Below are positions 3,788 to 30,041 of a stretch of 64,000 nucleotides of DNA, in pieces. A program made the position numbers and the translations under genes. The notes beneath the pieces were generated by a model that was not told the DNA's origin, did no database searches, and was given only the letters and a program-made list of their open reading frames with translations. Numbering within the stretch: position 1 is the stretch's first letter; the number at the start of each line of letters is the position of its first letter. The stretch is from assembly GCF_900156865.1 (NCBI RefSeq), contig NZ_LT732529.1:4018510-4082509 (forward strand). Direction: 5' to 3'. This DNA comes from Litchfieldia sinesaloumensis (GTDB lineage Bacteria > Bacillota > Bacilli > Bacillales > Bacillaceae_L).

Positions 3788-3857
3788 AATCAAACGTTTG
3801 TTTAATGATCTAGACCAGTACTACCAAAGGATTGTTAAATCAATCAAACGTTTGTTT
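3788..3857. promoter_or_regulatory. Pair of identical palindromic operators upstream of tetR
   Basis: Two copies of the same 16-mer, AATCAAACGTTTGTTT, lie at 3788-3803 and 3842-3857, exactly 54 bp start to start. The core TCAAACGTTTGA is a perfect palindrome or nearly so. The reverse-complement form AAACAAACGTTTGATTGA recurs intergenically at 24799 and 30024, with a variant at 29970. The sites lie between the DedA gene and the tetR start, the place expected for an operator; the binding protein is not known. Confidence 0.7.
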
Positions 3858-4002
3858 GAAAAGATTTAATAAATTGAGATAGACAAAAATAATTGCTGTA
3901 CTAGTCTATAAAGTGAGGAAAAAGTACATCATAATGTGTCATTTCTTTGTCTATCGTTCTCATTTACGGTATCTTAATCTATAATGAGGTGGGGTGAGCA
4001 AC

Positions 4003-4578
4003 ATGGCACGTGAGCGTAAATTTACGAAAGAAGAATTATACCGGGTTACGGAAGAGTTGCTTTTGACGTATAACTATGAAGGGTTCCAGATTAGTTTAGT
4101 GGCTGATCATTTGAATGTTTCCCGTGGGGCAATCTACAAGTACTATGAAAACAAGGAAGAATTAATCACGGAATATATGCTCTTTAAAATGGAACAGTTT
4201 CTTCAAGAGTTAGAGGAAATCAATAATATTATAGGTTTCCAATCTAAATTTGATTTCCTAATGACAATTATGTTTAAGAATCCTGAGCTTTATCAACTGA
4301 TTGAAATCGGTAAAAGTGTTCCAATTCACATAAATGTTAAAGTAAAAGAAGGTATAGAAAAACTCGACGGTTATCGTATAGAAATGTACGAATATGCACA
4401 CAGTTTTATTGAGGCAGGAAAGAGCGAGAAACTTTTAAATCCGAAAATTCCTGATTCAGTTATGTTAGGTTATATTTTCCAATCAGTCGTTATACCGAAT
4501 CACTTTAATATCCCGCATGATGTATGGGTTCAGTCGATTAAAGATCTGATTTGTCACGGAATATTCATTGATTCCTAA
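4003..4578 (+). CDS. TetR/AcrR-family transcriptional repressor
   Basis: The protein has 191 residues. The N-terminal HTH is clear: FTKEELYRVTEELLLTYNYEGFQISLVADHLNVSRGAIYKYYENKEEL, with the SRGAIYKYY recognition helix typical of TetR proteins. The C-terminal ligand/dimer domain is not conserved with a named family. I chose ATG 4003 because GAGGTGGGG ends 8 bases upstream; the in-frame GTG at 3994 overlaps that ribosome binding site. It precedes the MMPL exporter by 105 bp, and that gap carries a three-site operator array, so it is the obvious candidate repressor of the exporter. Confidence 0.9.
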   Translation: MARERKFTKEELYRVTEELLLTYNYEGFQISLVADHLNVSRGAIYKYYENKEELITEYMLFKMEQFLQELEEINNIIGFQSKFDFLMTIMFKNPELYQLIEIGKSVPIHINVKVKEGIEKLDGYRIEMYEYAHSFIEAGKSEKLLNPKIPDSVMLGYIFQSVVIPNHFNIPHDVWVQSIKDLICHGIFIDS

Positions 4579-4659
4579 TTGACACTGGCGTCACTTTGAA
4601 AGATAATTATCGTGACAATAGTGTCATTTTTTTTATTTTGAAAGTGACACCTGTGTTAC
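4579..4659 (+). promoter_or_regulatory. Sigma-A promoter covered by three phased operators for the MMPL exporter gene
   Basis: Three copies of a GTGACACNNGTGTCAC palindrome lie at 4579-4594 (TTGACACTGGCGTCAC), 4612-4627 (GTGACAATAGTGTCAT) and 4644-4659 (GTGACACCTGTGTTAC), 33 and 32 bp apart, which is about three helical turns. A promoter TTGACA (4579-4584), 17 bp, GATAAT (4602-4607) is embedded: site 1 overlaps the -35, site 2 the expected start point and site 3 the leader. This is the layout of a repressor-controlled promoter; the adjacent TetR protein is the likely ligand-responsive repressor. Confidence 0.8.
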
Positions 4660-4683
4660 TTTGGACAATAGAGGTGGAGTATC

Positions 4684-6792
4684 ATGAGTAAGATGTTACA
4701 AGCTATTACAGATAAAATTACCACAAAGAAAGGTATGTGGATTACACTTGCTACTTGGCTCGTTATAACGATAGTCTTGGCAGTTTTTGCGCCGAATGCA
4801 AAGGACTATGAGGTTTCAAGAATTGATTCACTTCCAGAAGATGCACAGTCGGTCATTGCGCAAAGTAAGGTAGATGAGTACTTCGAAGGTAGTAGCGGTA
4901 CCCCTGGAATATTAGTCTTTCAATCAAACGATGAGCAATTTGAATTCCAGGATCTAGTTGATGTGTTCACGCATATTGAAAATGCAGATATTCTAGGAGT
5001 AGAGCAAGTGGTTCCGCTTTCTGGATTGCCACCGCAGGCTGCTGCAGGATTTTTCTCAGAGGATCAGACAACTGCATTACTACCAATCGTCTTTGACGAA
5101 TCATTAGAAACAAAGGAAATTCGTACTTCAAAAGATGAAATCTTAAAAGTGGTTGAAGAATACTCGAATTTGACTTTATATGTCACTGGACCTGCAGGAA
5201 TCGCAACAGACTCACTTGATTTATTTTCAAGAGCAGATCTCGTTTTAATTCTCTCGACAGTAGGGTTAATCCTCATTTTATTAATTGTGATATACCGCTC
5301 GCCATTATTAGCACTTATACCATTGTTAGCAGCGGTATTTGTCTATGAAGTAGTTATGAAATCACTAGGTATTCTAGGAAGTGCGGGCTTAGATTTAAGC
5401 AATCAAACCATTTCAATCATGTCGATTCTTTTATTTGCCGCAGTTATTGACTATTCACTGTTTGTATTTTCTCGCTTTCGCGAAGAACTCAAGAACTATG
5501 AGAATAAATATGATGCAATGAGAGCTGCTATGAAAGAGGTAGGCATGCCGGTATTCTTCTCTGGAGGGACAGTATTGGCTGCAATGCTCGTGCTATTCTT
5601 TGCAGATCTAGGAGATTATCAAAACTTTGCACCGACCTTTGCTACAACAATGGTAATTATCATGGCGGCTTCAATCACGTTAGTGCCAGCCTTATTCACA
5701 CTTTTCGGTAGAAAATCATTCTGGCCAAAGGTTCCCAAGGTTGGCGATGATAAAGTAAAAGACAATTCGATTTGGAGCAAAATCGGTAGAATGGTTGTAA
5801 AAAAACCAGGATTATATGTTTCAATAGTTGGGCTAATCCTTCTAGTTTCAGCAGCTAACTTATTTAACCTAACATATGAATTTGATACGATGAAGTCCTT
5901 TCCAGAAGATATGCCTTCAAGACAAGGGTATGAAATATTAGAGGATAAGTTTGCAAAAGGCGAACTTGCGCCTTCAACCGTATTGTTTGAAAGGAAACAA
6001 CCCGTTACTCAAGAAGAACAAGAGTCATTACGTAATGAACTGTTGGAACAAGATCTTGTTAGTGAAGTGCGAGTCAACGGAACAGCTGATGAAAATAGGG
6101 TCCTCAATTTCTCATTAACCTTTGAAGAAGGTCCGTATGATGTTAAAACAATTGATGCGATTGAAAATATGATAAATAAAGCTGATACGATTGTAGCAGA
6201 TGCAGATCTAGATGGAGATCTTTACTTTGCTGGGGAAACAGCGACTAAAGTGGATGATCGAGCAACGAATAATCGAGATGTGATATTGATTGTCATACTT
6301 GAAACGATTTTAATCTTTGGGCTTTTAATAGTCCTGACTAAGTCAGTTAAAATGCCAATTTATATGATGGGTACGATTTTAGTTTCATTTTTATCAGCAT
6401 TAGGTCTTGGAATGTTTTTAACTAACTTATTCTTTGATATCGATACAATAGCCAATCGAGTTCCGTTGTATGCCTTTGTTTTCCTAGTTGCACTTGGAAT
6501 TGATTATAATATTATGCTTGTCTCACGATTCCAGGAGGAAAGAAGAAACCATTCAGTAAAAGAAGCAGTAGAAATTGCTGTAGCTAAAACAGGTGGGGTG
6601 ATTTCATCGGCAGGTATCATCTTAGCTGCAACCTTCGCTGTCCTAATGACACAGCCAGTACAATTATTATTCGTTTTCGGCTTTATTGTAGCCGTTGGTA
6701 TTCTACTAGACACTTTCTTAATTCGTGGAGTACTCTTACCTGGATTAATCGTCTTATTAGAAAAGGATAAGGCAGTAAGTAAAGAAAACTAA
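4684..6792 (+). CDS. MMPL/RND-family exporter (YdfJ-like)
   Basis: The 702-residue membrane protein has the duplicated RND layout: TM1 (about residues 18-37), a large extracytoplasmic loop to about residue 180, five TM helices, then TM7 near residue 380, a second loop to about residue 530 and five more helices. The conserved Asp-Tyr motifs of proton-driven MMPL pumps are present twice, as AAVIDYSLFVFSRFREE and ALGIDYNIMLVSRFQEE. Both halves contain the following FSGGTVLAA or SSAGIILAA segment. The start has GAGGTGGAG 5 bases upstream. Export of a hydrophobic or lipid-like compound driven by proton motive force is inferred; the substrate is unknown. Confidence 0.92.
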   Translation: MSKMLQAITDKITTKKGMWITLATWLVITIVLAVFAPNAKDYEVSRIDSLPEDAQSVIAQSKVDEYFEGSSGTPGILVFQSNDEQFEFQDLVDVFTHIENADILGVEQVVPLSGLPPQAAAGFFSEDQTTALLPIVFDESLETKEIRTSKDEILKVVEEYSNLTLYVTGPAGIATDSLDLFSRADLVLILSTVGLILILLIVIYRSPLLALIPLLAAVFVYEVVMKSLGILGSAGLDLSNQTISIMSILLFAAVIDYSLFVFSRFREELKNYENKYDAMRAAMKEVGMPVFFSGGTVLAAMLVLFFADLGDYQNFAPTFATTMVIIMAASITLVPALFTLFGRKSFWPKVPKVGDDKVKDNSIWSKIGRMVVKKPGLYVSIVGLILLVSAANLFNLTYEFDTMKSFPEDMPSRQGYEILEDKFAKGELAPSTVLFERKQPVTQEEQESLRNELLEQDLVSEVRVNGTADENRVLNFSLTFEEGPYDVKTIDAIENMINKADTIVADADLDGDLYFAGETATKVDDRATNNRDVILIVILETILIFGLLIVLTKSVKMPIYMMGTILVSFLSALGLGMFLTNLFFDIDTIANRVPLYAFVFLVALGIDYNIMLVSRFQEERRNHSVKEAVEIAVAKTGGVISSAGIILAATFAVLMTQPVQLLFVFGFIVAVGILLDTFLIRGVLLPGLIVLLEKDKAVSKEN

Positions 6793-6796
6793 TAAG

Positions 6797-6831
6797 AAAA
6801 GCCTATATCATGGTGATATGGGCTTTTTTAT
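6797..6831 (+). terminator. Intrinsic terminator after the MMPL gene
   Basis: The hairpin GCCTATATCA-tgg-TGATATGGGC is followed by TTTTTT, 5 bp after the exporter stop codon. Confidence 0.9.
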
Positions 6832-6983
6832 TGGAGTTCGTAGATGTAATATCATTGATATTAAGAAGTTGACAAGTTTTGTGAATTGTGAAAATATGTT
6901 GATATCCCCTCTGCTCCTCGAGCCCCTTCATTGAGAGATTCCAAAGATTAATCAACTAAATAAAGAAAAGGAAGGCTAAAAAG

Positions 6984-7904
6984 ATGTTACTTAAAGAAAG
7001 AAAAATCCCCAATAACCTCCAATTACGCCGATATTTAAAGCCCCGAATAGCGTTTACTGAAGGGCAGTTAAAAAAGTTGCTAACCGATGAAAAAGGTTTC
7101 GAAGGTGAATGTAAATTTGATGAACTGATCGCCCGTTCTCCCGCATCAACATATCTCCAATTAAACGACCTCTTCCTTGAATGGAGAAACACGACTTTTC
7201 AAATTGACTCATCCTTAATTACTCCACATAAAGTCTATCTTTTTGACGTTAAAAACTATGAAGGAGAATTTTATATTGAAGGTAACCGATGGTATTATTC
7301 ATCGGGGTATGAGATAAAGAATCCAATCCTACAACTTCAGCGCTCAGAATCCCTTCTTACACCACTCATTCAATCTTTAGGTATAAATCTTCCCATTGAA
7401 TCAAAGATCGTTTTTGTAAATCCTAACTTTACTCTATTCCAGGCAAATAGACTACTACCAATTATCCTACCTACACAAGTGAACTCTTTGTTGAAGAGTT
7501 TTGGATCGGTTTCGATGAAGTCGAGTGGGCATTTAGTAAAGTCAGCAAAAGAACTGGCATTACTACACAATGACAAAACGCCATTTGATAATATGCACAT
7601 CCCTGAATACGCCTATGAATCTTTAAATAAAGGAGTATCCTGTTGTGGATGTGGGTCGTTAGCTGTTCATGTAAATGGAAGAGTCCTAATGTGTAAGAGA
7701 TGCAGGGCAATCGAGAAGCTACATACGGGTATTATGAGAACGGTTGAAGAACATAGAGTTCTCTTTCCAAAGAGGTTTTTAACGGTTTCCGAAGCAATTG
7801 AATGGTGTAGATTAGACTTAAATAAGCTTAGAATGCAGAAAATACTAAAGGAGCACCTTGTGATGGTAGAGGGTGGAAAATCGACGTATTATCGCTTCGA
7901 GTAG
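6984..7904 (+). CDS. NERD (nuclease-related) domain protein with C-terminal zinc ribbon
   Basis: The 306-residue protein carries a NERD domain at about residues 38-155: GFEGECKFDELI, a hydrophobic beta-strand region, YLFDVKNYEGEF (the D-x-K core of the PD-(D/E)XK fold) and NPILQLQRSESLL. The C-terminal part has a possible zinc ribbon, CCGC then CKRC about 20 residues later, followed by a helical region with SEAIEWCRLDL. A DNA-related role is inferred from the fold only. It stands alone between a terminator and a repeat array. The ATG follows AAGGAAGG. Confidence 0.82.
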   Translation: MLLKERKIPNNLQLRRYLKPRIAFTEGQLKKLLTDEKGFEGECKFDELIARSPASTYLQLNDLFLEWRNTTFQIDSSLITPHKVYLFDVKNYEGEFYIEGNRWYYSSGYEIKNPILQLQRSESLLTPLIQSLGINLPIESKIVFVNPNFTLFQANRLLPIILPTQVNSLLKSFGSVSMKSSGHLVKSAKELALLHNDKTPFDNMHIPEYAYESLNKGVSCCGCGSLAVHVNGRVLMCKRCRAIEKLHTGIMRTVEEHRVLFPKRFLTVSEAIEWCRLDLNKLRMQKILKEHLVMVEGGKSTYYRFE

Positions 7905-7994
7905 GGTTCAAAAGGTGACTTATAAATGAAAAGAGAGCAGAGGCTGTATCAACAAGGGGTGTACATGTATTTTTGCTTTTAGATGACGATTATT

Positions 7995-8740
7995 TATGCG
8001 GAAATCCATAGTATGGAAGTTTGTCCGCAAAATTGGTTGGAATTGTAATATAAGTCCACACTCGCATGGTTTGTTGTAACAAAAGCAGAAGAAAGCATGC
8101 ACAAATCCAGAATGCGCATGCATTTTAGTTAATAGCTGTAGCAAAGCCATGTGTAATATCCAGGATGTGGAGGAAAATTCCATAAAGTTAGTTATAACAG
8201 TAAAAAAGTTCCACACCCGCATGATTTGTTGTAACAAAAGCAGAAGAAAGCATGCACAAATCCAGAATGCGCATGCATTTTAGTTAATAGCTGTAGCAAA
8301 GCCATGTGTAATATCCAGGACATGGAAGAAGAACCCGTAAAGTCAGTTGTAATTGTAAAAAAGTTCCACACCCGCATGATTTGTTGTAACAAAAGCAGTA
8401 AAAACCATGCGCAAATCTGGAATGCGCATGCCTTTCGATTAATAGCTGAAGCAAAGCCATGTGTAATATCCAGGATGTGGAAGAAAAGTCCATAAAGTTA
8501 GTTATAACAGTAAAAAAGTTCCACACCCGCATGATTTGTTGTAACAAAAGCAGTAAAAACCATGCGCAAATCCGGAATGCGCATGCCTTTCGATTAATAG
8601 CTGAAGCAAAACCATGCGCAATATCCAGGACATGGAAGAAAAACCTGTAAAGTCAGTCGTAACAGTAAAAAAGTTCCACACCCGCATGGTTTGTTGTAAT
8701 AAAAGCAGAAGAAAGCATGCACAAATCCGGAATGCATTGC
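7995..8740. repeat. Tandem array with an exact 155-bp period, each unit built of about three 52-bp subunits
   Basis: The landmark CGCATG-R-TTTGTTGTAA starts at 8063, 8218, 8373, 8528 and 8683, always 155 bp apart, giving more than four copies plus degenerate edges. Inside each unit a second CGCATG landmark falls 52 bp after the first (8063 to 8115), and the subunits share a GCATG-(2)-CAAATCC-RGAATG-like core, so the unit looks like a diverged trimer. All six frames are broken or low-complexity and I see no real gene. It fills most of the 900 bp between the NERD gene and potD. Confidence 0.9.
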
Positions 8741-8771
8741 CACTGTGTTGTGAGGTGCCCAGACAAATTCA

Positions 8772-8804
8772 AAAAGACCTATATCAGTTAAGATACAGGC
8801 CTTC
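8772..8804 (-). terminator. Intrinsic terminator of the potABCD operon
   Basis: Read on the minus strand the hairpin AAGGCCTGTATC/GATATAGGTCTT is followed by a T-run, just downstream of the potD stop. Confidence 0.75.
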
Positions 8805-8807
8805 ATA

Positions 8808-9881
8808 TTAGTTTTGTGCCATTTTGAATTCTAGGAATAGCTGATTGTAGATAGAGAGATTCCGCTTGCCTAGGTTTTCATACACTTCAAGCTTCTCTGT
8901 TAGTTCAGGAGAAGGGTAGAAGCGCTCGTCAGTCACCATATCCTCAGGCATATATTGAAGTGCCTCTTTGTTTGGAGTAGAGTAACTGACATATTCAGTG
9001 TTCTGCGCGGCAACTTCAGCATCTAACATAAAATTAATGAATTGATGCGCGCCATCTATATTTTTGGCAGTCTTCGGAATAACCATATTATCAAACCAAA
9101 GGTTGGATCCTTCACTTGGGACCACATAATCTATGTCTTCGTTTTCCCACATGATATCAGCTGCATCACCAGACCATACTATCCCAATAGCGGCTTCCTC
9201 ATTCTGAATGAGTACTTTTCCTTCGTCACCGACAATGGCTTTAACGTTTGGTGTGAGCTTGATAAGTTTTTCCTTTGCCTCGTTTAAATGGTCGATATTT
9301 GTATCATTCAATGAATAGCCGAGAGAGTTTAGTCCCATCCCGATAATTTCCCTCGCGCCATCGACCAGGATAATTTCGTTTTTAAGAGAAGGATCCCAAA
9401 GGTCATTCCAGCTAGTAAATTCTCTTCCCTCAAGCATTGTAGGATTAAAGACAATCCCGACAGTCCCCCAGAAATAGGGAACAGAGTATTGATTGCCTGG
9501 GTCAAAAGGTAGATCCATGAAACGCTCATCAATGTTTACTAAATTTGGCAATTTCGAGTGATCAAGAGGGACAAGTAGGTCCTCTTGCCGCATTTTATCA
9601 ATCATATATTCAGAAGGAACAGCGATATCATAGCTTGTTCCACCTTGCTCAATTTTTGTCATCATTGCTTCGTTAGAGTCGAAAGTTTCATAAATGATTT
9701 TAATTCCGGTTTCCTCTTCAAAGCGGTCAATTAATTCCTCATCAATATAATCGCCCCAGTTATAAATGGTCAATGTGTTCCCACTAGCGAGACCCTGTGA
9801 CGAATTTAAATGATGGATAAGATAGAGTAGTCCACCTGAAACAAGTACAATTGCTAAGAATAGCCGGATTAGTTTCGTCAT
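8808..9881 (-). CDS. potD: Spermidine/putrescine ABC transporter, substrate-binding lipoprotein-like subunit
   Basis: The 357-residue PotD-type protein captures polyamines outside the membrane. It begins with a hydrophobic leader (about residues 5-22, LFLAIVLVSGGLLYL) without a clear lipobox cysteine, then NTLTIYNWGDYIDEELIDRFEEETGI, the signature PotD/PotF opening. The typical YFWGTVGIVFNP, WNDLWDP and AQFINFMLDAE-like segments (AHQFINFMLDAEVAAQNT) follow. Its ATG overlaps the potC stop by 4 bp, so it is the last gene of the potABCD operon and translationally coupled. Confidence 0.95.
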   Translation of the reverse strand: MTKLIRLFLAIVLVSGGLLYLIHHLNSSQGLASGNTLTIYNWGDYIDEELIDRFEEETGIKIIYETFDSNEAMMTKIEQGGTSYDIAVPSEYMIDKMRQEDLLVPLDHSKLPNLVNIDERFMDLPFDPGNQYSVPYFWGTVGIVFNPTMLEGREFTSWNDLWDPSLKNEIILVDGAREIIGMGLNSLGYSLNDTNIDHLNEAKEKLIKLTPNVKAIVGDEGKVLIQNEEAAIGIVWSGDAADIMWENEDIDYVVPSEGSNLWFDNMVIPKTAKNIDGAHQFINFMLDAEVAAQNTEYVSYSTPNKEALQYMPEDMVTDERFYPSPELTEKLEVYENLGKRNLSIYNQLFLEFKMAQN

Positions 9882-10690
9882 TTTCGTACCCCCAATCCGC
9901 GCGTGCTATTACGTTGTGCGATAAAGTAATAGCCGACAACAAGCATCATCGTAAAGATAAAGAGAAGTGTTGACAATGCATTAATATTTAATGAGATTCC
10001 GCGACGTGCGAGGGAATAGATTTCAACAGACAGAGTTGAGAATCCGTTACCCGTTACGAAAAATGTCACGGCAAAATCATCAAAAGAGTACGTAAGTGCC
10101 ATGAAAAATCCAGCAAAGATGCCTGGAGTAATATAAGGGATAATGACCTTTGATAGAACTTGCCAATTGCTAGCTCCAAGGTCTTTAGCCGCGTCAATAA
10201 GAGTTGGACTCATTTCCTTTAATCTTGGCAGTACCATTAGAACAACAATCGGAATACAGAAGGCAATATGCGAAAGTAACACAGAATAAAAGCCTAGTTT
10301 GATTCCAGCCATTGTTAATAGAATCAGAAACGACGCACCAATAATAACATCGGGACTCACAATTAACACGTTATTTAACGATAACAATGTATTTTGTGTT
10401 TGTCTTTGTTTAATAGAATGAATCCAAATTGCCCCAAGCACACCAATAATGGTTGAAATAAGCGCAGAAAGCAAGGCAATAACGATTGTATTTAACACAA
10501 TGATTAATAGCCTAGTGTCTCCGAATAGTTCTTTGTACCAATCCAAGGTAAATCCATCAAAATTACTCATTGTCCCACCACTATTAAATGAGTAATAAAT
10601 TAAATAGAAAATCGGCGCATATAAAATGAAGAAAATGACAAATAGATATGCTTTAGATGACAGAGCAAGTTTATCTCTCATTTTTAGCAC
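9878..10690 (-). CDS. potC: Spermidine/putrescine ABC transporter permease PotC
   Basis: The 270-residue permease has about six TM segments. The binding-protein-dependent transport EAA loop reads LIDAAKDLGASNWQVLSKVIIPYITPGI, the contact with PotA. The N-terminus (LFVIFFILYAPIFYLIYYSFN) is typical of PotC. It overlaps potB by 20 bp and potD by 4 bp. Confidence 0.94.
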   Translation of the reverse strand: MLKMRDKLALSSKAYLFVIFFILYAPIFYLIYYSFNSGGTMSNFDGFTLDWYKELFGDTRLLIIVLNTIVIALLSALISTIIGVLGAIWIHSIKQRQTQNTLLSLNNVLIVSPDVIIGASFLILLTMAGIKLGFYSVLLSHIAFCIPIVVLMVLPRLKEMSPTLIDAAKDLGASNWQVLSKVIIPYITPGIFAGFFMALTYSFDDFAVTFFVTGNGFSTLSVEIYSLARRGISLNINALSTLLFIFTMMLVVGYYFIAQRNSTRGLGVRK

Positions 10691-11489
10691 CTCGTTTCTT
10701 GCGGTTTCCTGTTAAGACCATAATGATTACCATGAAGATTATCAGGAAGACGGCAATTGTGGAACCCATGCCCCAATCCTGAGTGACGAGAAATTGTTGT
10801 TCAATAGCTGTACCAAGCGTAATGACTTTGTTCCCCGCAATTAACCTTGTTAGCATGAACAACGAAAGTGCAGGAATAAATACAACCTGGCAGCCCGATC
10901 TTACCCCTTGAATCGTTAGTGGAAAAATCACACGACGAAATGTAGTCCATTTTGATGCTCCAAGATCACGTGCTGCATCGAGTAGACTAGGGTTGAGTTC
11001 GTTTAATGAGTTGAAAATCGGTAATATCATAAAAGGAATAAATATATAAACAGATACAAACACAAAGCTAAAGTCTGTGAATAGTAATTGTTTAGAGCCG
11101 ATTCCGAACACTTCAAGAAGTGCGTTTGCAGCTCCATGTGCCCCAAAGATACCAATAAAGGCATAGGCTTTTAATAATAGATTGATCCAAGAAGGAGCAA
11201 TAATGAGCAGCAACCAAAGATGTTTATGCTTCGTTCTTGTAATCAAGTATGCTGTTGGGTAAGCAACTAATAGAGTAAAAGCAGTTATTAGAAACGCATA
11301 CCAAAACGAACTCAACGTCATCTTTAAGTAAATCGGTGTAAAGAACGTCTTGTAGTTTACAAGTGATAAATTACCCTCGATATCAAAAAACGAATAATAG
11401 AGGACAAGAGTAATCGGTGCAATAACAAAAACAAGAATCCATAAAGCATAAGGGATAAATAGTAGATTTCGAGATAGCTTATTTTCCAT
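10671..11489 (-). CDS. potB: Spermidine/putrescine ABC transporter permease PotB
   Basis: The 272-residue permease has about six TM segments and an EAA loop [26 protein letters not shown] use the ATG at 11489 (MENKLSRN), which overlaps the potA end by 11 bp; an upstream in-frame start at 11507 would add six residues and overlap more of potA. It pairs with PotC in the membrane channel of the polyamine importer. Confidence 0.93.
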
Positions 11490-12588: not shown

Positions 12589-12639
12589 AGCAACCCCCTT
12601 CTTTCTATATAAGGTAGAGTTTTAGTGCAATCCGGCATA

Positions 12640-12839: not shown

Positions 12840-12990
12840 CGGAACAACTGAATAAAGTAAGAGCAAATTCATTGAAAGATGAAGACGCAAAACTATAGGG
12901 GCTAAAGTCCATAAATAAGTGTTCAAAGTGTCATTTTCGACTGACTATTGAAACATCCTTTAGGACATGCCAGCCAGTTGCCGAGTATAA
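12840..12990 (+). ncRNA. Cyclic-di-GMP-I (GEMM-I) riboswitch aptamer
   Basis: The conserved GEMM-I elements occur in order. First is GAGCAAA, then a hairpin TTCAT-TGAAAG-ATGAA with a GAAA tetraloop. The invariant GACGCAAAACTATAGGGGCTAAAG block is at about 12883-12906 (written here by its ends GACGCAAA and GGGCTAAAG). A long imperfect stem closes with AGTCC/GGAC, and the tetraloop-receptor side GCCAGCCAGTTGCCG follows. The P2-like arm is longer than usual (about 50 nt). Family knowledge: these aptamers sense c-di-GMP. A terminator follows directly, and the next gene encodes a GGDEF protein. Confidence 0.9.
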
Positions 12991-20130: not shown

Positions 20131-20144
20131 AGGAGGGGAGACCA

Positions 20145-21836: not shown

Positions 21837-21839
21837 TTA

Positions 21840-22222
21840 GAAAAGCGGAGGCGAGCGTTAAGCGACGTACGGACTGAGGCCCATACGAAGTGGGTCACAC
21901 AGACGTTGCCACAGGACGTGGCGAACTTAGTCTGTGTTCCTTCAAGGAATAAAGGAAACACGGAGAGCGGAGCGAACCGATGTTGACCTTATCGTACGAA
22001 GGGTGAGGGAAGTCTCGCTAGTCGCTGCGAGCCGAAGCTGGACAAAAGGAAAAGCGGAGGCGCCTTGCCCAGAAACGAGAAAACTGGAGATTCCGACAAA
22101 GAGGCGTACTTAGCCTCTGCAGGAGGAATAGAAGTTTCTCGAGTTTCTAGGCGCCGAAGCTGGACAAAAGGAAAAGCGGAGGCGAGCGTTGAAGTAGGCA
22201 TTTTGAGAGATAGCGAAAAAAT
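21840..22222 (+). repeat. Cluster of three structured Bacillaceae-type dispersed repeats inside the oxidase gene cluster
   Basis: The opening GAAAAGCGGAGGCG occurs at 21840, 22049 and 22171, and the closing GCCGAAGCTGGACAAAAG at about 22030 and 22152 directly precedes the next opening. The segment is GC-richer than the flanks, begins 4 bp after the subunit I stop and ends about 50 bp before the SCO gene. Short open frames here are not genes. Similar ends (TCTAGCTCTAGGCGCC) recur near 58613. Confidence 0.8.
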
Positions 22223-22275
22223 GCTATCTCTTTCAACCATTAACATGTGAAAACTAGAAATAGGATGTGATTAGC

Positions 22276-22908: not shown

Positions 22909-22911
22909 GCT

Positions 22912-23472
22912 TTGAAACAATTTTTGATCGGACTAGGACTATTAATCGTATTAGCACTACCCCCAGTTGCTAATTTACTTGAATCCATCATGATTATCCA
23001 TATGCATATGCAAATGCCTTCGATTGTGATTGCTGGTTTCTTAATGGGAAAACTCTTTCAACAAAGGTTTCCGACGCTTTTTGAAAAATGGAACGAAAAT
23101 GGAGTGCCTGGAATTTTGTTATTTACCGTCATTATGGTGTACTGGACAATCCCAAAAACAATGGATGAAACGTTAACCATTACAAGCATGGAAGTATTTA
23201 AATTTTTTAGTTTATCTTTATTAGCGGGTGTTCCATTACGAGATAGCTGGAAGAAACTAAGTGATCGAGCAAAGAATTTAGTTTTTATTTTTTTCACAGT
23301 GAAGTATTTGGGTATGGGAGTGTTATATATTAATACAAACATGCAACTATGTAATAACTACCTGGTAATCGATCAAATCACTCTGGGCTGGGGATTTATT
23401 ACAACAGCAATTTGTATTGCCATCTATTTGGTATATAACAATTTTACAGATCAATCGATATATAAGGAATAG
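22912..23472 (+). CDS. Polytopic membrane protein of the oxidase cluster, unknown family
   Basis: The 186-residue protein has about five to six TM segments and starts with TTG 3 bp after the SCO stop. A His/Met-rich sequence IIHMHMQMPS at the end of the first helix could bind copper. I do not recognise the family; position behind SCO suggests a role in oxidase assembly or copper handling. Confidence 0.72.
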   Translation: MKQFLIGLGLLIVLALPPVANLLESIMIIHMHMQMPSIVIAGFLMGKLFQQRFPTLFEKWNENGVPGILLFTVIMVYWTIPKTMDETLTITSMEVFKFFSLSLLAGVPLRDSWKKLSDRAKNLVFIFFTVKYLGMGVLYINTNMQLCNNYLVIDQITLGWGFITTAICIAIYLVYNNFTDQSIYKE

Positions 23473-23476
23473 AGTA

Positions 23477-23507
23477 GAGAAGCTGCAACCTGCGGCTTCT
23501 CTTTTTT
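23477..23507 (+). terminator. Terminator of the oxidase/SCO cluster
   Basis: GAGAAGC-tgcaacctgcg-GCTTCTC is followed by TTTTTT. Confidence 0.9.
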
Positions 23508-23587
23508 AAAAACTGGTAGTGTTCCAATTGACAACCAAAAAAATAAAGTTCAGAATAATAACAATACAAAAAAAGAAGGTGGAAAAG

Positions 23588-24730
23588 TTGGCAAAAAGGT
23601 TTGAAACGAAATTAATACATAGTACTGAAAAGGGCAAGATCCCAATTAGAAGTAAGGTAACACCAATCTATCAAACATCCGCCTTTACCTTTGATAGCCT
23701 TGAAGATTTAGAGGGTTACTTCCAAGGGGAAGGAAATTATTTATATTCTCGTACGGGAAATCCAAATCCAGATGAGCTTGGCCAAATGGTAGCTGCAATT
23801 GAAGGTGCACCAGCTGGGATTGCTACATCTTCAGGACTTTCTGCTATTTTTGCTGGTGTCCTATCAGTTGCCAAAAGTGGAGATCATATTGTTGCAGCAG
23901 AGGATGTATATGGAGGAAGTTTTCATCTATTACGAGAAGAATTGCATCAACTAGGCATTGAAACGACATTTGTTTCATTCACAAATCTTGAATTAGTAGA
24001 AAAGGCAATCCAACCTAATACTAAACTACTCTATACAGAGTCTATTACAAATCCACTTTTACGAGTAGAAAACCTACAAGCTGTAGTTGGACTTGCGAAA
24101 CGGCATAACCTGGTGACTGTAGTAGATAATACATTTGCAACACCTTATCATTGTAACCCATATGACCTTGGCGTCGAGTTGGTTGTTCATAGTGCGACTA
24201 AATACATTGGGGGACATAGTGATGTTACAGCCGGTGTAGTTGTGGGAAGAGAGGACTTGGTTGCAAAAGCACGTGAGAAGGTGGTTAATATTGGTGCGAA
24301 TGTGAGTCCTTTTGAAGCCTGGCTTACCACTCGAGGATTAAAAACGTTAGCAGTTCGTATGCAGGTACAGTCTTCAAATGCACGAAAGCTTGCCGACGCA
24401 TTTAAGAATAACTCACATATTTCAAGAGTTTACTATCCTTTTGAGGAAGACGTTACTGGTTACGGCGCAATGGTTACTGTTGAACTTGCGCAGACTGTTG
24501 ATGTGGAAGGATTTTTTAAGTCATTAGGATGGGTGAAAATAGTTCCTACTTTAGCGGGGGTAGAAACGACGGTATCACACCCTCTAAAGACATCCCATCG
24601 TTCACTACCACCTGAAGCGCAGGATGCTTTAGGGATTACAAACCATCTTGTTCGAATCTCAGTCGGAATTGAACATTCTGAAGATATCATTTCAGTGTTT
24701 GAACAAGCCGTTGAAAACTCTATTAAATAA
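23588..24730 (+). CDS. Trans-sulfuration PLP enzyme (cystathionine gamma-synthase/lyase, MetB/MetC/MGL family)
   Basis: The 380-residue enzyme has the family landmarks YSRTGNPNPDELGQMVAAIEG, TESITNPLLRVENL, VVDNTFATP (PLP-binding Asp) and VHSATKYIGGHSDVTAG (Schiff-base Lys), and ends ...HLVRISVGIEHSEDII. It makes or breaks C-S bonds in the cysteine/homocysteine pathway. The start is TTG 23588 after GAAGGTGG; the frame extends upstream without a better site. No partner gene (metI, mccA) is adjacent, so synthase, gamma-lyase or methionine gamma-lyase cannot be separated. Confidence 0.88.
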   Translation: MAKRFETKLIHSTEKGKIPIRSKVTPIYQTSAFTFDSLEDLEGYFQGEGNYLYSRTGNPNPDELGQMVAAIEGAPAGIATSSGLSAIFAGVLSVAKSGDHIVAAEDVYGGSFHLLREELHQLGIETTFVSFTNLELVEKAIQPNTKLLYTESITNPLLRVENLQAVVGLAKRHNLVTVVDNTFATPYHCNPYDLGVELVVHSATKYIGGHSDVTAGVVVGREDLVAKAREKVVNIGANVSPFEAWLTTRGLKTLAVRMQVQSSNARKLADAFKNNSHISRVYYPFEEDVTGYGAMVTVELAQTVDVEGFFKSLGWVKIVPTLAGVETTVSHPLKTSHRSLPPEAQDALGITNHLVRISVGIEHSEDIISVFEQAVENSIK

Positions 24731-24739
24731 TCCAATTAG

Positions 24740-24770
24740 AAAGAGTATCCATGAAAGTGGATACTCTTTT
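24740..24770 (+). terminator. Intrinsic terminator
   Basis: AAAGAGTATCC-atgaaagt-GGATACTCTTTT follows the trans-sulfuration gene. Confidence 0.88.
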
Positions 24771-24798
24771 GTTAGAATTTAAATAAGAGATTTTGTTT

Positions 24799-24816
24799 AA
24801 ACAAACGTTTGATTGA
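24799..24816 (+). promoter_or_regulatory. Intergenic copy of the recurring palindromic 18-mer
   Basis: AAACAAACGTTTGATTGA is identical to the sites at 30024 and, inverted, at 3788 and 3842. Here it lies between two convergent gene ends (after the trans-sulfuration terminator, before the rocR stop), which is not an ordinary promoter position. Confidence 0.65.
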
Positions 24817-24971
24817 AAGGTAAACCTGTCATCTTTATTCGGTGATTCGACCTATTTCTACTCATTTCCCGAGCAATAATTGTTTCCTAGTGTTGTAATT
24901 TGAAAATGAATGTAGAAATATAGATTTAGTGAAAAATTTTTTAGGAGCCAGGAGAACCGTCAAAGTAATGT

Positions 24972-26366
24972 TTACCTTGGTTTTTGAATTCCGTATTTTT
25001 TTAGTCTATATTGTAGGTTTTGGCGACTCATACCAAGAGCTTTCGCAGACTTTGTTATATTATATGAATAGCGTTCAAGCACATTTTTTAAGTATAGTGT
25101 CTCAGCGTCCTCCATATATTTGTCTAATGGCTGAATTTCGGTTAATTCAATTGCATGTGAGTTTAATTGTGTAATGCTGGAGTTTGAACTTATCTTCTTT
25201 CGGAAATGCATAGGGAGATGATTGTATGAAATCGCATCTTCATATGTAATAGCGTTTAATGCGCCCTCAATCATATGTTCTAACTCGCGAACATTTCCAG
25301 GCCAGTCGTATTCCAAAAAAGTCAGTAGGACCTTGTCATCAATCCTTTTTACATCCATACCAAATAGATAATTATATTTTTGCATAAAAGCATATGCGAG
25401 ATCTTTTATATCTTCCTTACGTTTACGTAGTGGAGGTATAAAAAGGGTTACAACACTTAATCTGTAGAACAGGTCCTTACGAAGTCTACCTTCTGAAATG
25501 GCATCAACAGGGTCCTCGTTCATCGTGGCAATAATTCGGACATTCACTTTTTTATCCTTCGTATCACCGACTCTTCGAACGACCTTCTCCTGGATTACAC
25601 GCAGTAGCTTGGCTTGAAGCGAAGGGTTTACTGAATTAATTTCGTCTAGTAGCAAAGTGCCTCCTTCAGCTTGTTCAAATAGTCCAGGACGGTCAACTGC
25701 TCCCGTAAATCCACCTTTCTTCGTACCAAATAAGATACCTTCGATTAGACCATCTGGTAATGCCGCACAATTTTGAGAGATAAAAGGTGCAGAAGACCTG
25801 CTGCTTTCATAATGTATACTTTGGGCAAAAAGCTCCTTTCCAGTTCCGGTATCTCCAATAATGAGAACCGAGGAACTTGTACGAGTAGCACGTTTGCTGG
25901 CCTCAATGACCTCTGAAATTACGGTGCTATCTCCTATAATGCTATCGAACGTGTAATGTGTATCACCTCTGCGATTTATATTATCACGCATTAATTTCTC
26001 AATTTTAGTAATATCACGAGCAATTTCCATCGCCCCAATCTGTTTATGGCCGTCCATTATCGGGGTTGTATTATTGATGGTAGTGATTTCTAGTCCGCGA
26101 TTATTGTAATAGGTCTGTTTTTCGTTTTTTAAGGGATCTCCTGTTTTAAGAACTTGAAGTAAGGTGCTATCTTCATTTTTATGAAAGGAAAATACATCTA
26201 CAAGTCTTTTGTAGAGAACGTCATTTTGATTCATACCCTCTATTTGTGCCATTTTTTGATTGTAGATAATTGTTGTACCTTCAGAGTCTACAACATGTAT
26301 TCCAACGTCAACCTCATTTACAACCTGTTTTGCTGCTACGATTTCGACTAATTCTCGTTGTGTCAA
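24972..26366 (-). CDS. rocR: RocR-like sigma-54-dependent activator of arginine/ornithine catabolism
   Basis: The 464-residue protein has an N-terminal PAS-type sensor (about residues 8-110, NEVDVGIHVVDSEGTTIIYN), an AAA+ domain (about 130-370) with Walker A GDTGTGKE, the sigma-54 contact loop GGFTGA (canonical GAFTGA with Ala to Gly) and Walker B LLLDEINS, and a C-terminal Fis-type HTH (ITKSAKALGMSRQNLQYRLKK). I chose TTG 26366, 7 bases after GGCGG, over ATG 26393 which lacks a ribosome binding site. It is divergent from rocD, whose sigma-54 promoter and RocR-like upstream sites lie between the two genes. Confidence 0.9.
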   Translation of the reverse strand: MTQRELVEIVAAKQVVNEVDVGIHVVDSEGTTIIYNQKMAQIEGMNQNDVLYKRLVDVFSFHKNEDSTLLQVLKTGDPLKNEKQTYYNNRGLEITTINNTTPIMDGHKQIGAMEIARDITKIEKLMRDNINRRGDTHYTFDSIIGDSTVISEVIEASKRATRTSSSVLIIGDTGTGKELFAQSIHYESSRSSAPFISQNCAALPDGLIEGILFGTKKGGFTGAVDRPGLFEQAEGGTLLLDEINSVNPSLQAKLLRVIQEKVVRRVGDTKDKKVNVRIIATMNEDPVDAISEGRLRKDLFYRLSVVTLFIPPLRKRKEDIKDLAYAFMQKYNYLFGMDVKRIDDKVLLTFLEYDWPGNVRELEHMIEGALNAITYEDAISYNHLPMHFRKKISSNSSITQLNSHAIELTEIQPLDKYMEDAETLYLKNVLERYSYNITKSAKALGMSRQNLQYRLKKYGIQKPR

Positions 26367-26415
26367 AGTATCACCGCCATTTTTTACTTTCATTATAAGA
26401 GAAATAAGGAGTAAA

Positions 26416-26485
26416 GCAAAATATTTTTGCCTCCAAAATTAGTTGGTGAAAATATTTTTTGCTATTTTACGCAAAAAAATTTTGC
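26416..26485. promoter_or_regulatory. Three RocR-like upstream activating sites
   Basis: A/T-rich palindromes with GCAAAA/TTTTGC ends occur at 26416-26430 (GCAAAATATTTTTGC), 26447-26462 (less perfect, TGAAAATATTTTTTGC) and 26471-26485 (GCAAAAAAATTTTGC). They lie about 85-150 bp before the sigma-54 promoter of rocD, the usual enhancer distance. Confidence 0.75.
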
Positions 26486-26568
26486 TCATTTTAAAAAATA
26501 TGGGGAAAAACTCAGATGTAATCAGGCATTAAGGTAAAAAAACAACAAAAGGGCAGCTTTCAAGAAGC

Positions 26569-26587
26569 TTGGCATGATTCTTGCATA
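26569..26587 (+). promoter_or_regulatory. Sigma-54 (SigL) promoter of rocD
   Basis: TTGGCATGATTCTTGCATA matches the -24/-12 consensus TGGCA-N7-TTGCA with the invariant GG and GC at the right spacing. The start point would be near 26597, about 50 bp before rocD. Confidence 0.93.
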
Positions 26588-26647
26588 ATATAGTAATAAA
26601 GAAGCAATTCTTATAAAAGGTTTAAATAGGATTTGGAGGTTGTTTAA

Positions 26648-27850
26648 ATGAATCAGGCTAAAACCAGTTCGACAACAATAATTCAGCAGACGGAAAAGTT
26701 TGGTGCAAATAATTATCATCCGCTACCGATTGTGATTTCAAAGGCTGAAGGTGCATGGGTGGAGGATCCCGAGGGTAATAAATACATGGACATGTTGAGT
26801 GCATATTCAGCGGTTAATCAGGGTCACCGCCATCCGAAGATTATTCAAGCCTTAAAAGACCAAGCGGATCGGGTAACATTAACTTCACGTGCTTTTCACA
26901 ATGATCAGCTTGGGCCTTGGTATGAATTAATATGCAAAATTACCAATAAAGAGATGGCTCTACCAATGAACACAGGAGCCGAGGCTGTAGAAACAGCAAT
27001 TAAGGCAGCACGTAGGTGGGCTTACGATGTAAAGGGCGTAAAAGAAAACCAAGCAGAAATCATCGCGTGTGTAGGAAACTTTCATGGTCGTACGATGACT
27101 GCAGTTTCTTTATCTTCTGAAGACGAATATAAGCGTGGTTTTGGTCCAATGTTGCCTGGAATTAAGCTGGTACCGTATGGTGACATTGCTGCACTAAGAA
27201 ATGCAATAACTGAACATACAGCAGCTTTTCTTTTTGAACCCATTCAAGGTGAGGCAGGAATTATCATTCCACCAAAAGGCTATCTGAAACAAGCTTTTGA
27301 GACATGTAAGCAAAACAATGTCCTGTTTATTGCGGATGAAATCCAAGCGGGTCTTTGCAGATCTGGTAAGATGTTAGCGTGTGATTGGGAAGAAGTAGAG
27401 CCTGATATGTATATTTTAGGAAAAGCATTAGGCGGTGGGGTGTTCCCGATTTCTTGTGTCGTAGCCAACAAGAATGTGTTAGGTGTATTTAATCCTGGTT
27501 CACATGGTTCTACTTTCGGTGGTAATCCAATGGCTTGTGCTGTATCGATTGCGTCTTTACAGGTGTTAATCGATGAAGATTTGGCACAACGTTCTCTGGA
27601 ACTCGGGGACTACTTTTTAAATCGATTAAAAGAGATTAAGAATCCAATTATTAAAGAGGTTCGTGGTCGTGGTTTGTTTATTGGTGTAGAGTTAACAGAG
27701 GCAGCTAGACCTTATTGTGAGGCATTAAAGCAAGAGGGACTGCTATGTAAAGAAACACATGAGACTGTGATTCGATTTGCTCCACCCTTAATCGTAACAA
27801 AAGAGGAATTGGACTGGGCAATTGAACGAATTGTGAAGGTTTTAAGCTAA
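26648..27850 (+). CDS. rocD: Ornithine--oxo-acid aminotransferase
   Basis: The 400-residue class III PLP aminotransferase converts ornithine and 2-oxoglutarate to glutamate semialdehyde and glutamate. Landmarks are [77 protein letters not shown] and [14 protein letters not shown] (Schiff-base Lys). The length is that of bacillary RocD. It is driven by a sigma-54 promoter with RocR sites; its partner genes rocE/rocF are not adjacent here. Confidence 0.96.
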
Positions 27851-27857
27851 AGTTTCT

Positions 27858-27886
27858 AAAAAAGGATCAATAGCTGATCCTTTTTT
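27858..27886. terminator. Bidirectional terminator between convergent rocD and the amidinotransferase-fold gene
   Basis: AAAAAAGGATCA-atagc-TGATCCTTTTTT is symmetric with A- and T-runs. Confidence 0.9.
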
Positions 27887-27899
27887 GCCTTACTTATGG

Positions 27900-28889
27900 C
27901 TAGACTGGCTCACGAGTCAGTGGAAGTGTTAGACAGTGAATGCCGCCACCTAATTTATAGAATTCAGAGATATCAACAGGAATAATTTCAATTCCGTTTG
28001 CTTTAAGTAATTCCATCGTTTTCACTCCAGAGGAGGGGAAAATAAGTCTTCCAGGTGAAACCGGTAAGACATTTATGGTCAAGGGGGGATCTTCTGGGTG
28101 AACATGGAATAATTCAATTTTTCTTTTATGAAGTTCATCTATAAACCAATATGGAAGTAGAGCTTTATTTATTAGTGCTTTATCACGGTCAATAAGGAGA
28201 AATGCTTCATCAAGATGAATGATAGTTGATGGCAAGTCTACGGTTATAAGTTCAATATTTTGTAGTGAGAGTATGTACTGCAATTGCTCAATCCCACTAG
28301 GACTTACACGTTCAGAACGACCGATAATGGCCGTATGTTCATTTAGCATCGTAAAACTTCCACCTTCAACAAATCCATTACCTTGAATGCATCCTAAAAT
28401 GGGTATTCCTACTTTAGCAAACGTTTGTGAGGCTAGACGTGTTTCACCATATCGAATATAAATAGCTAGTCTGGATAGAATGACGCCACTTGGTATAACC
28501 ATTCCTAAATCTCTAGTGAAGGTCCTTTCTGGAAGGTCTTCCTGATTTCCCTCAAGATAAATAACCTCTATGCCTTCGTGCTCTAATGCTTTAACTAGCT
28601 TGTCGTGTTGATCTTGTAAAACAATTAGATCTACTTTTTGGTTTTTTTCAAGGTCTTCTGGTTGTGTACCCTTGATATATTTTACCAATAATGGACCAGA
28701 TTCAATATCCTTTGGATTCTGTTTTAGGTTTAGTACTTCTTTTCCAGGCCGATGCATCACAACCTTGGTTAATTTTCCTACATCATTGGTAACGCCCCAT
28801 GACTCTCTCCATACATCTTTAATAAGGGTATAGTCGTGAAAGGGCTCCTGCACAAGGTTGCGGGTGTGTTTTTGATTTGCTTCTTTCAT
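27900..28889 (-). CDS. Arginine deiminase/amidinotransferase-superfamily enzyme
   Basis: The 329-residue protein has the alpha/beta-propeller guanidino-modifying fold: TKVVMHRPGKEV at the start, FTRDLGMVIPSGVILSRLA, the acidic motif GFVEGGSF, catalytic HLDEAFLLID and the C-terminal Cys nucleophile in GGGIHCLTLPLTREP. It could be an arginine deiminase-like, dimethylarginine hydrolase-like or amidinotransferase enzyme; all yield or consume citrulline/ornithine-type compounds, which fits its position beside rocD. The C-terminal GGGIHCLT(L) is closest to amidinotransferase/deiminases. Confidence 0.82.
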   Translation of the reverse strand: MKEANQKHTRNLVQEPFHDYTLIKDVWRESWGVTNDVGKLTKVVMHRPGKEVLNLKQNPKDIESGPLLVKYIKGTQPEDLEKNQKVDLIVLQDQHDKLVKALEHEGIEVIYLEGNQEDLPERTFTRDLGMVIPSGVILSRLAIYIRYGETRLASQTFAKVGIPILGCIQGNGFVEGGSFTMLNEHTAIIGRSERVSPSGIEQLQYILSLQNIELITVDLPSTIIHLDEAFLLIDRDKALINKALLPYWFIDELHKRKIELFHVHPEDPPLTINVLPVSPGRLIFPSSGVKTMELLKANGIEIIPVDISEFYKLGGGIHCLTLPLTREPV

Positions 28890-28920
28890 TTAATTCCTCC
28901 TTACTTCAATCCATTATTTA

Positions 28921-28952
28921 AAAAAGCCCCATAGATTCAATCATGGGGGCTT
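28921..28952 (-). terminator. Intrinsic terminator of the small hydrophilic protein gene
   Basis: On the minus strand AAAGCCCCCATGATT/GATTCTATGGGGCTTT forms a long hairpin followed by TTTTTT. Confidence 0.8.
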
Positions 28953-28970
28953 TATCGGTTGTTTACTAAT

Positions 28971-29138
28971 TTAAGGCATTTCATCTTCTTTTACTCTATT
29001 TTTAAAAGCTTCATGTGAGACAATCCCTTCCATTTGTTCGAATTGACGACTGTGATCTTTTTCTTCACTAGTGCTGTTCTTTGGGAAATTGCCAGGATGG
29101 CCTTTTTCTTTGTGGTTAAAGTTTTTTCCGCGTCCCAT
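28971..29138 (-). CDS. Small hydrophilic protein of unknown function
   Basis: The 55-residue protein starts MGRGKNFNHKEKGHPGNFPKN and is rich in Lys, Asn, Glu and His with no hydrophobic segment, resembling minor spore/SASP-like or YfhD-type proteins of bacilli in composition; I cannot assign a family. The third in-frame ATG (29138) is chosen because AAAGGAGAC is 6 bases upstream; earlier ATGs overlap or precede this site. It has its own terminator. Confidence 0.6.
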   Translation of the reverse strand: MGRGKNFNHKEKGHPGNFPKNSTSEEKDHSRQFEQMEGIVSHEAFKNRVKEDEMP

Positions 29139-29306
29139 ATTCATGTCTCCTTTCAGATTCATTCCTCCGTAGTTTTTGCATTCCTATGGTTTGTATGTAT
29201 TCCGTCTTATTTGGTAAATCGAGGAAGGGTCAAGAAAAACCATGCAACTCCTTTTCATCGATGTGTGAAGAGGGGTTATGTCCCCAATCTAGCACAGAAA
29301 ATCCAA

Positions 29307-29335
29307 ACAATCCCTATATGTCCTAGGGGGATTTT
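29307..29335 (+). terminator. Terminator-like hairpin before the cupin gene
   Basis: AATCCCTA-tatgtc-CTAGGGGGATT is followed by TTTTAA. It may end readthrough or act in a leader. Confidence 0.4.
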
Positions 29336-29401
29336 TAAGTACAGGTTCTCATTGAAATAGGTTAGACTAGTAATAATGTTTTAATGTGAGGAGTTTTAAA
29401 A

Positions 29402-29902
29402 TTGAACCAAAAAAATGCACAATACTACATATCAAATCTTGGACTTGAACCACACCCCGAAGGTGGCTTTTATAAGCAAACTTTTATATCAGATATGGTG
29501 ACCCATACGGAACAAGACAAGGAGAGAAGACTCTACACGAGTATCTATTTTCTGCTGAGATCTCAAGATGTTTCCCATCTACATAGATTACAATCTGATG
29601 AACTCTGGTATTACCATGGTGGCAGTTCTTTAACAGTCCATATTATCGATGAAAAAGGAGACTATAAAGAGGTGAATCTTGGTCTGCAACTTGATCAAGG
29701 AGAGGTCCCACAAATTCTCGTACCAAAACACTCCATTTTTGGATCATCAGTTAAGGATAAAAATACTTTTTCTCTTGTTGGCTGTATGGTCTCTCCAGGT
29801 TTTGAATTTGAGGACTTTGAATTATTTACTCAGGAAGAATTACTGCAGGAATATCCTCAACATGAGGAGGTTATTCGTAAACTTGCGTATAAGAAAAAGT
29901 AG
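29402..29902 (+). CDS. DUF985 cupin-fold protein
   Basis: The 166-residue protein matches the DUF985/cupin_5 pattern: YISNLGLEPHPEGGFYKQTF, RRLYTSIYFLL, SHLHRLQSDELWYYHGGSSLTVHII and VGCMVSPGFEFEDFEL. Two-strand cupin motifs with HxH (HLHRLQSDE) suggest metal or small sugar binding. The function is unknown. The start is TTG, 9 bases after GTGAGGAG. Confidence 0.85.
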   Translation: MNQKNAQYYISNLGLEPHPEGGFYKQTFISDMVTHTEQDKERRLYTSIYFLLRSQDVSHLHRLQSDELWYYHGGSSLTVHIIDEKGDYKEVNLGLQLDQGEVPQILVPKHSIFGSSVKDKNTFSLVGCMVSPGFEFEDFELFTQEELLQEYPQHEEVIRKLAYKKK

Positions 29903-29969
29903 ATGCGAATACTAAAATTATCGTTCCTCGATATATAACAGCAACGATTTCAGAGCAAATTTCCAATTC

Positions 29970-30041
29970 AAACAAACGCTTGAATGAAATTTGAATTGCC
30001 TATTGGCATTGAGATAGAACGCTAAACAAACGTTTGATTGA
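29970..30041 (+). promoter_or_regulatory. Pair of palindromic operators upstream of the tyrosine phenol-lyase gene
   Basis: AAACAAACGCTTGAATGA (29970-29987, variant) and AAACAAACGTTTGATTGA (30024-30041, exact) are 54 bp apart start to start, the same spacing as the pair before tetR (3788/3842). An ATTGAGATAGA string lies between them at 30008 and also follows the tetR pair at 3873. Confidence 0.7.

What the first reader, a model, noticed from the sequence alone, without database searches (positions are those of the whole stretch)
3788..30041. Identical 18-bp sequence with a palindromic core at four intergenic sites plus a variant, twice as a 54-bp pair
AAACAAACGTTTGATTGA occurs exactly at 24799 and 30024 and inverted at 3788 and 3842; a variant lies at 29970. 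The pairs 3788/3842 (before tetR) and 29970/30024 (before tyrosine phenol-lyase) share exactly 54-bp spacing. The centre resembles CAAAC..GTTTG operators known for some TetR-family regulators. One copy lies between two gene ends, so a simple promoter operator does not explain all copies. Possibilities: a regulon linking the TetR protein, or another regulator, to tpl; or a chromosome-organising binding site of the RefZ type. I cannot tell which.
Basis: partly seen in the sequence, partly recalled or inferred. Interest (0 to 1): 0.75.

Follow-up and report, generated by a model that had tools for sequence, protein, structure and literature searches.

The report
Paired RefZ-type sites flanking the origin
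A 22-base palindrome, mostly in pairs exactly 54 bases apart, lies in two belts on either side of the replication origin of this Bacillus relative, where it is likely bound by the sporulation protein RefZ and would mark how much of the chromosome is caught in the forming spore.

Summary
The 18-mer is real: four exact copies and one variant (the inverted ones start at 3786 and 3840). It is part of a palindrome, about TTCAAACAAACGNTTGNTTGAA. The genome has 24 strong sites; 20 form ten pairs with centres exactly 54 bp apart. They are not promoter operators: of 89 loci in the family, 27 lie between convergent and only 9 between divergent genes. All 11 loci of this genome lie in two belts flanking oriC (-12 to -9% and +10 to +17% of the chromosome). 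In 15 chromosomes with a placed origin, 110 of 114 loci lie 5-20% from it, 57 left and 53 right, none closer. Two or more copies occur in 182 of 335 genomes with refZ and 0 of 52 without. At four orthologous places the palindromes are 93-97% identical, the spacers 56-71%. Best explanation: these are RefZ-binding motifs (RBMs), the origin-flanking sites that set chromosome capture at sporulation, here in a paired form that I did not find described. RefZ binding is inferred, not shown; the B. subtilis RBM sequence could not be read. The proposed tetR-tpl regulon is not supported.

The parts
3784..3807 (.). palindrome, left member of the pair before tetR
   Evidence: matrix score 30
3838..3861 (.). 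palindrome, right member of that pair, centre 54 bp away
   Evidence: matrix score 33
24795..24818 (.). single palindrome between two converging gene ends; no partner at +/-54
   Evidence: matrix score 32
29966..29989 (.). palindrome, left member of the pair before tyrosine phenol-lyase
   Evidence: matrix score 28; kept in 5 genomes of the genus
30020..30043 (.). palindrome, right member of that pair, centre 54 bp away
   Evidence: matrix score 29; kept in 5 genomes of the genus
3748..3762 (-). outer motif (ATTAGTACAGATT type, read on the - strand) beside the tetR pair; role unknown
   Evidence: position; seen
3895..3906 (-). outer motif (GTACAG type, read on the - strand) on the other side of the tetR pair; role unknown
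   Evidence: position; seen
29933..29942 (+). outer left motif ATATAACAGC of the tpl pair; role unknown
30059..30068 (+). outer right motif GAAACAGATT of the tpl pair; role unknown

Best explanation
The palindromes, mostly in pairs 54 bp apart, flank the replication origin on both chromosome arms and are likely the DNA-binding sites (RBMs) of this organism's RefZ, a TetR-family sporulation protein. Shown here: the palindrome, the fixed pairing, the belts 5-20% from the origin on both arms, the co-occurrence with the refZ gene, and the conservation of palindromes and spacing over the spacer sequence. Inferred: RefZ dimers bind each palindrome, and the fixed spacing lets two sets of dimers sit in one complex. 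When the chromosome is stretched from pole to pole at sporulation, the two belts would lie near the polar division site, where bound RefZ would tune FtsZ so that a set part of the chromosome is caught in the forespore, as reported for B. subtilis. The sites would act by their position on the chromosome, not by regulating the genes beside them.
For: Position: all 11 loci of this genome lie in two belts around oriC; in 15 chromosomes 110 of 114 loci lie 5-20% from the origin, 57 left and 53 right, none within 5%. Partner: RefZ (NF037937) over cut-off in 17 of 17 family genomes; this genome's RefZ matches the solved B. subtilis protein 6mj1 over residues 8-200, 218.7 bits, recognition-helix ISYYF kept. 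Co-occurrence: at least 2 copies in 182 of 335 genomes with refZ, 0 of 52 without; in families f14, f21, f22 and f35 the 14 genomes without refZ all have none. Not operators: convergent 27, divergent 9, tandem 43, overlapping a called ORF 10, of 89 loci. Constraint on palindromes over spacers. Halves vary independently at +/-2 and pair below chance at +/-6 in 404 sites, as for a dimer on duplex DNA. B. subtilis precedent: PMC6657595 (Introduction and passages), PMC11154705 (passages).
Against: No binding data. The B. subtilis RBM sequence could not be compared (papers not held). B. subtilis has one RBM near oriC; here 0 of 114 loci lie within 5%. 153 of 335 genomes with refZ have fewer than two exact copies, and several families with refZ have hardly any (f25, f36, f46 and others). 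Co-occurrence with refZ may only reflect co-occurrence with sporulation. Ten further genomes could not be placed; in one, G257, the eight sites look scattered, and G090 has only two, as many as its control. The halves do covary at +/-9.
Confidence: 0.82

Rival explanations
1. The sites mark the same origin-flanking belts but are bound by another sporulation or chromosome-organising protein, of TetR or LacI type, and not by RefZ.
For: Same position data. Many genomes with refZ lack the motif. A conserved central CG with free +/-2 positions recalls LacI-family operators (recalled, not tested).
Against: RefZ is the known protein with this layout, it is in 17 of 17 family genomes, and 0 of 52 genomes without refZ have two copies.
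Confidence: 0.13
2. An ordinary repressor operator: the TetR at 3994-4578 or another regulator controls tpl and other genes through the pairs.
For: Pairs lie 130-135 bp before the tetR and tpl ORFs; pairs lie before a TetR gene also in L092, L102 and L230.
Against: 27 of 89 loci lie between convergent genes and 9 between divergent ones; neighbours differ between genera while origin distance is kept.
Confidence: 0.03
3. A mobile palindromic repeat (REP/REPIN- or PATE-like) spread by a Y1 transposase.
For: Both Y1_Tnp hits of this genome lie within about 0.6 kb of an element, 5 of 20 in the genus; one scores as REP-associated tyrosine transposase. 29 of 60 aligned elements share longer flanks. 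Tandem arrays in some species.
Against: 15 of 20 Y1 loci have no strong site in the fetched flanks. Restriction to two belts, palindromes kept over spacers and no hairpin pairing at +/-2 and +/-6 do not fit a selfish hairpin repeat.
Confidence: 0.02

Closest known systems
RefZ (YttP) and its binding motifs (RBMs) of Bacillus subtilis
   Same: Near-palindromic sites on both arms at kept distances from oriC; RefZ orthologue present; no tie to the genes beside them (PMC6657595 Introduction).
   Different: Sites in 54-57 bp pairs and arrays, 11 loci in this genome instead of five single sites, none within 5% of the origin; sequence identity with the B. subtilis RBM not checked.
SlmA/SBS (E. coli) and Noc/NBS (B. 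subtilis) nucleoid occlusion
   Same: Palindromic chromosome sites as positional landmarks for division (described in PMC6657595 Introduction).
   Different: Those sites are spread over the chromosome except the terminus; these are confined to two belts.
REP/BIME/REPIN repeats with REP-associated transposases
   Same: Intergenic, often at 3' ends, paired palindromes, Y1 transposase gene close by in 5 of 20 cases.
   Different: No hairpin pairing at the informative positions, low copy number, origin-flanking placement.

Membership tests
RefZ-RBM system | RefZ orthologue encoded | tested here: met
   265.8 bits against cut-off 180 at G000:C3:2380281-2380862; 17 of 17 family genomes
RefZ-RBM system | nearly palindromic sites on both chromosome arms at kept distance from oriC | tested here: met
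   110 of 114 loci 5-20% from the origin, 57 left, 53 right, 15 chromosomes
RefZ-RBM system | sites occur with refZ | tested here: met
   two or more copies in 182 of 335 genomes with refZ, 0 of 52 without; confounded with sporulation
RefZ-RBM system | one further site near oriC (as in B. subtilis) | tested here: not met
   0 of 114 loci within 5% of the origin; may be a B. subtilis trait and not a defining one
RefZ-RBM system | motif sequence equals the B. subtilis RBM | not testable with these tools
   source papers not held
RefZ-RBM system | RefZ binds the motif; motif needed for chromosome capture | not testable with these tools
   needs the bench
promoter operator regulon of the local TetR | sites in promoters of regulated genes | tested here: not met
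   27 convergent, 9 divergent of 89 loci
REP/REPIN repeats | palindrome kept as a hairpin | tested here: not met
   pairs at +/-6: 164 of 404, 194.2 expected for independent halves; +/-2: 315 against 316.6; but +/-9: 250 against 205.3
SlmA/Noc nucleoid occlusion | sites over the whole chromosome except the terminus | tested here: not met
   two belts only

The most novel reading that the evidence does not exclude
RefZ sites have evolved into a two-palindrome unit of fixed geometry (54, 55 or 57 bp by genus, with outer ACAG motifs that shift by about one helical turn on both sides), expanded in some species to regular arrays: a nucleoprotein scaffold of set architecture that marks the septation boundary, not a set of single operator-like sites.
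Probability: 0.45. Interest if true: 0.72.

Novelty: new variant of a known kind. Interest (0 to 1): 0.55.

Why it matters
It gives a testable binding consensus for a sporulation landmark in many Bacillaceae lineages, and shows that two origin-flanking belts persist while the genes around them change. [quoted passage not shown] It also keeps a recurrent repeat from being annotated as a TetR regulon.

Tried and rejected
Hairpin or RNA element: no pairing signal at +/-2 and +/-6 (an excess at +/-9 remains); Rfam finds in window 1-33000 only Bacillaceae-1 RNA and a c-di-GMP-I riboswitch, neither at the sites. CRISPR-like array: repeats too variable, spacers semi-conserved (by eye). LacI-type binder: suggested by the central CG (recalled); a regular expression found LacI-like ORFs 2.8 and 5.7 kb from sites, in 2 loci of those scanned; not pursued. 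Mobile REPIN/PATE element: followed, disfavoured by position and conservation. The residue before ISYYF in RefZ against motif number: compared by eye, not clean, dropped. Literature: four 14-16-base stretches of the motif gave 0 papers; listings and the passages read brought no RBM sequence and no paired RBMs.

Rows left out. One search used 89 loci; of the places listed, seven of G001 were not fetched. Origin test: of the 24 genomes were used with G000. Left out: G010, G015, G040 (site lists not shown in full), G042, G044, G257, G090, G273 (origin not located), G133, G281 (first 3 kb reads N). What was seen of them: G010 places lie 12-17% and G040 about 10% from the start, where dnaA is; G273, G133 and G281 show clusters; G257 looks scattered, G090 has 2 sites and 2 control hits, and G042 has its pair near the middle of a contig whose origin I did not place. 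Sites within 2 kb were merged. The 5-20% limits were set after seeing the first genomes; for 'within 20%' alone P is 1e-38, but the genomes are related, so P values are only a guide. The site lists came from two patterns and, for G000, the matrix. In one search, loci fetched twice or only as short search loci were skipped and sites below matrix score 20 dropped.

Full report
OBSERVATION. The 18-mer AAACAAACGTTTGATTGA occurs exactly at 24799 and 30024 (+) and at 3786 and 3840 (-), with a two-mismatch variant at 29970; eight hits at up to three mismatches against 0.24 expected. In the whole genome, whose 4.55-Mb contig holds the window at 4018510-4082509, one search found 44 hits at up to three mismatches. 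A matrix from 24 sites describes a palindrome, about TTCAAACAAACGNTTGNTTGAA, with an invariant C at +/-5, a strongly conserved central CG and a weakly conserved position at +/-2. The 24 sites form ten intact pairs with centres exactly 54 bp apart, plus a third site 35 bp from one pair, one site whose partner at +54 is decayed (by eye), and two single sites (24806 in the window; one inside an ORF with histidine-kinase matches).

RELATIVES. In the 17 genomes of the family, a pattern allowing core spacings from 49 to 63 bp matched in 16, with no match to the reversed pattern. In the DNA fetched, spacing is 54 (a few 53 or 55) in the window's genus, 55 in two sister genera and 57 in a third; one pair is 51, and extra sites occur at 33-35 bp. 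Some species carry regular arrays, for example Neobacillus rhizosphaerae L149, Cytobacillus depressus L131/L139 and B. massilionigeriensis. Viral contigs gave one stretch.

NOT PROMOTER OPERATORS. Of 89 element loci with simple ORF calls, 43 lie between tandem genes, 27 between convergent and 9 between divergent ones; 10 overlap a called ORF, eight of these ORFs being of 125 aa or less. In five genomes of another genus the sites lie at the 3' end of one large gene (metH, recalled from its protein sequence).

CONSTRAINT. At four orthologous places in the genus (20 copies compared), the two palindromes are 92.8-96.7% identical between species, the 30-bp spacer 56.3-71.4%, the 60-bp flanks 51-79%, and all 20 copies have 54 bp spacing, although copies had been picked at 53-55 bp. 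Across 404 distinct sites the two halves vary independently at +/-2 (315 paired, 316.6 expected) and pair less than chance at +/-6 (164, 194.2 expected); at +/-9 there is an excess (250, 205.3). On balance this fits a protein dimer on duplex DNA better than a hairpin.

POSITION. GC skew switches from minus to plus between samples at 3.55 and 3.80 Mb and back between 0.95 and 1.2 Mb; gyrB lies at about 3,581,407, so oriC is near 3.577 Mb, taking the dnaA-gyrB distance of G010 (dnaA itself was not in the stretch fetched). The 11 loci of this genome lie at -11.6, -9.3, -9.1 and -8.7% and at +9.8, 10.2, 10.4, 11.3, 14.4, 15.9 and 17.3% of the chromosome. The same layout appears in 14 further chromosomes in which dnaA was found (sites). 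In all 15, 110 of 114 loci lie 5-20% from the origin, 57 left and 53 right, none within 5%, four beyond 20%. Genomes with single instead of paired sites show it too: three of family f29 have exactly five sites each, two or three per arm. Ten genomes could not be used; they are listed, with what was seen, in Tried and rejected, and one (G257) looks scattered.

PARTNER GENE. This is the layout reported for RefZ of B. subtilis, whose binding motifs lie two on each arm and one near oriC, bound the region caught in the forespore, and keep their position across the genus Bacillus (PMC6657595, Introduction and passages; PMC11154705, passages). RefZ (NF037937) is over its cut-off in 17 of 17 family genomes. 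This genome's RefZ matches B. subtilis YttP/RefZ 6mj1 over residues 8-200 with 218.7 bits and keeps the ISYYF of the recognition helix (PMC6657595 places Y43 and Y44 there). In 387 genomes of the order, the exact palindrome TNAANCAANCGNTTGNTTNA occurs in 257; it occurs at least twice in 182 of 335 with refZ and in 0 of 52 without, sums 1181 and 8; the reversed pattern has 8 matches in all, counted by eye. Families with both kinds point the same way or are silent: f14, f21, f22 and f35 have 14 genomes without refZ, all with zero copies; f17 has one, with zero; f25 has none in either kind. Against this, 153 genomes with refZ have fewer than two exact copies, so their motif has presumably changed; and loss of sporulation as a whole could lie behind the correlation.

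LONGER ELEMENT. In the genus, 60 pairs were lined up; 29, picked because they carry such motifs, have an outer left motif like TATAACAG and an outer right motif like GATTAGTACAG. They fall into two classes whose outer motifs lie about 11 bp further out on both sides. Many paralogue pairs share similarity to about +47 or +36 bp right of the second palindrome. What reads these outer motifs is unknown.

MECHANISM. Shown: palindrome, pairing, constraint, position, co-occurrence. Inferred: RefZ binds each palindrome as dimers and the pair sets up a larger complex; at sporulation the belts lie near the polar septum and tune FtsZ placement. The neighbours tpl and tetR are then incidental, although the tpl place is kept in five species.

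NOVELTY. Origin-flanking RBMs are known. What is new here, as far as the searches show, is the paired and arrayed form with genus-specific spacing and the wide consensus. Hence new variant of a known kind.

Noticed in passing
L011:1195-1989 (about G000:C3:3162195-3162989) and G000:C3:3180373-3180552: The only two Y1_Tnp hits of this genome, one intact REP-associated tyrosine transposase and one short remnant, each lie within about 0.6 kb of a paired element; in the genus 5 of 20 Y1 loci do. Unexplained.
   Followed up: partly
window 29933-30068 and L010, L011, L012, L068-L076, L093-L096: Outer motifs TATAACAG and GATTAGTACAG flank 29 of 60 pairs; in two classes they sit about one helical turn further out on both sides.
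   Followed up: partly
RefZ loci L276-L338: The residue before ISYYF in the RefZ recognition helix is N in this family, H in B. subtilis RefZ and in the f43 proteins seen, L in two f17 proteins; it may bear on motif differences between families.
   Followed up: no
L149:50-640, L131:1770-2095, L138:5490-5860: Regular arrays of the palindrome at about 52-67 bp steps in Neobacillus rhizosphaerae, Cytobacillus depressus and Salinibacillus xinjiangensis.
   Followed up: partly
window 21880-21946 (-) and 12852-12927 (+): Bacillaceae-1 RNA (72.2 bits) and a c-di-GMP-I riboswitch just over its cut-off (35.5 against 35 bits).
   Followed up: no
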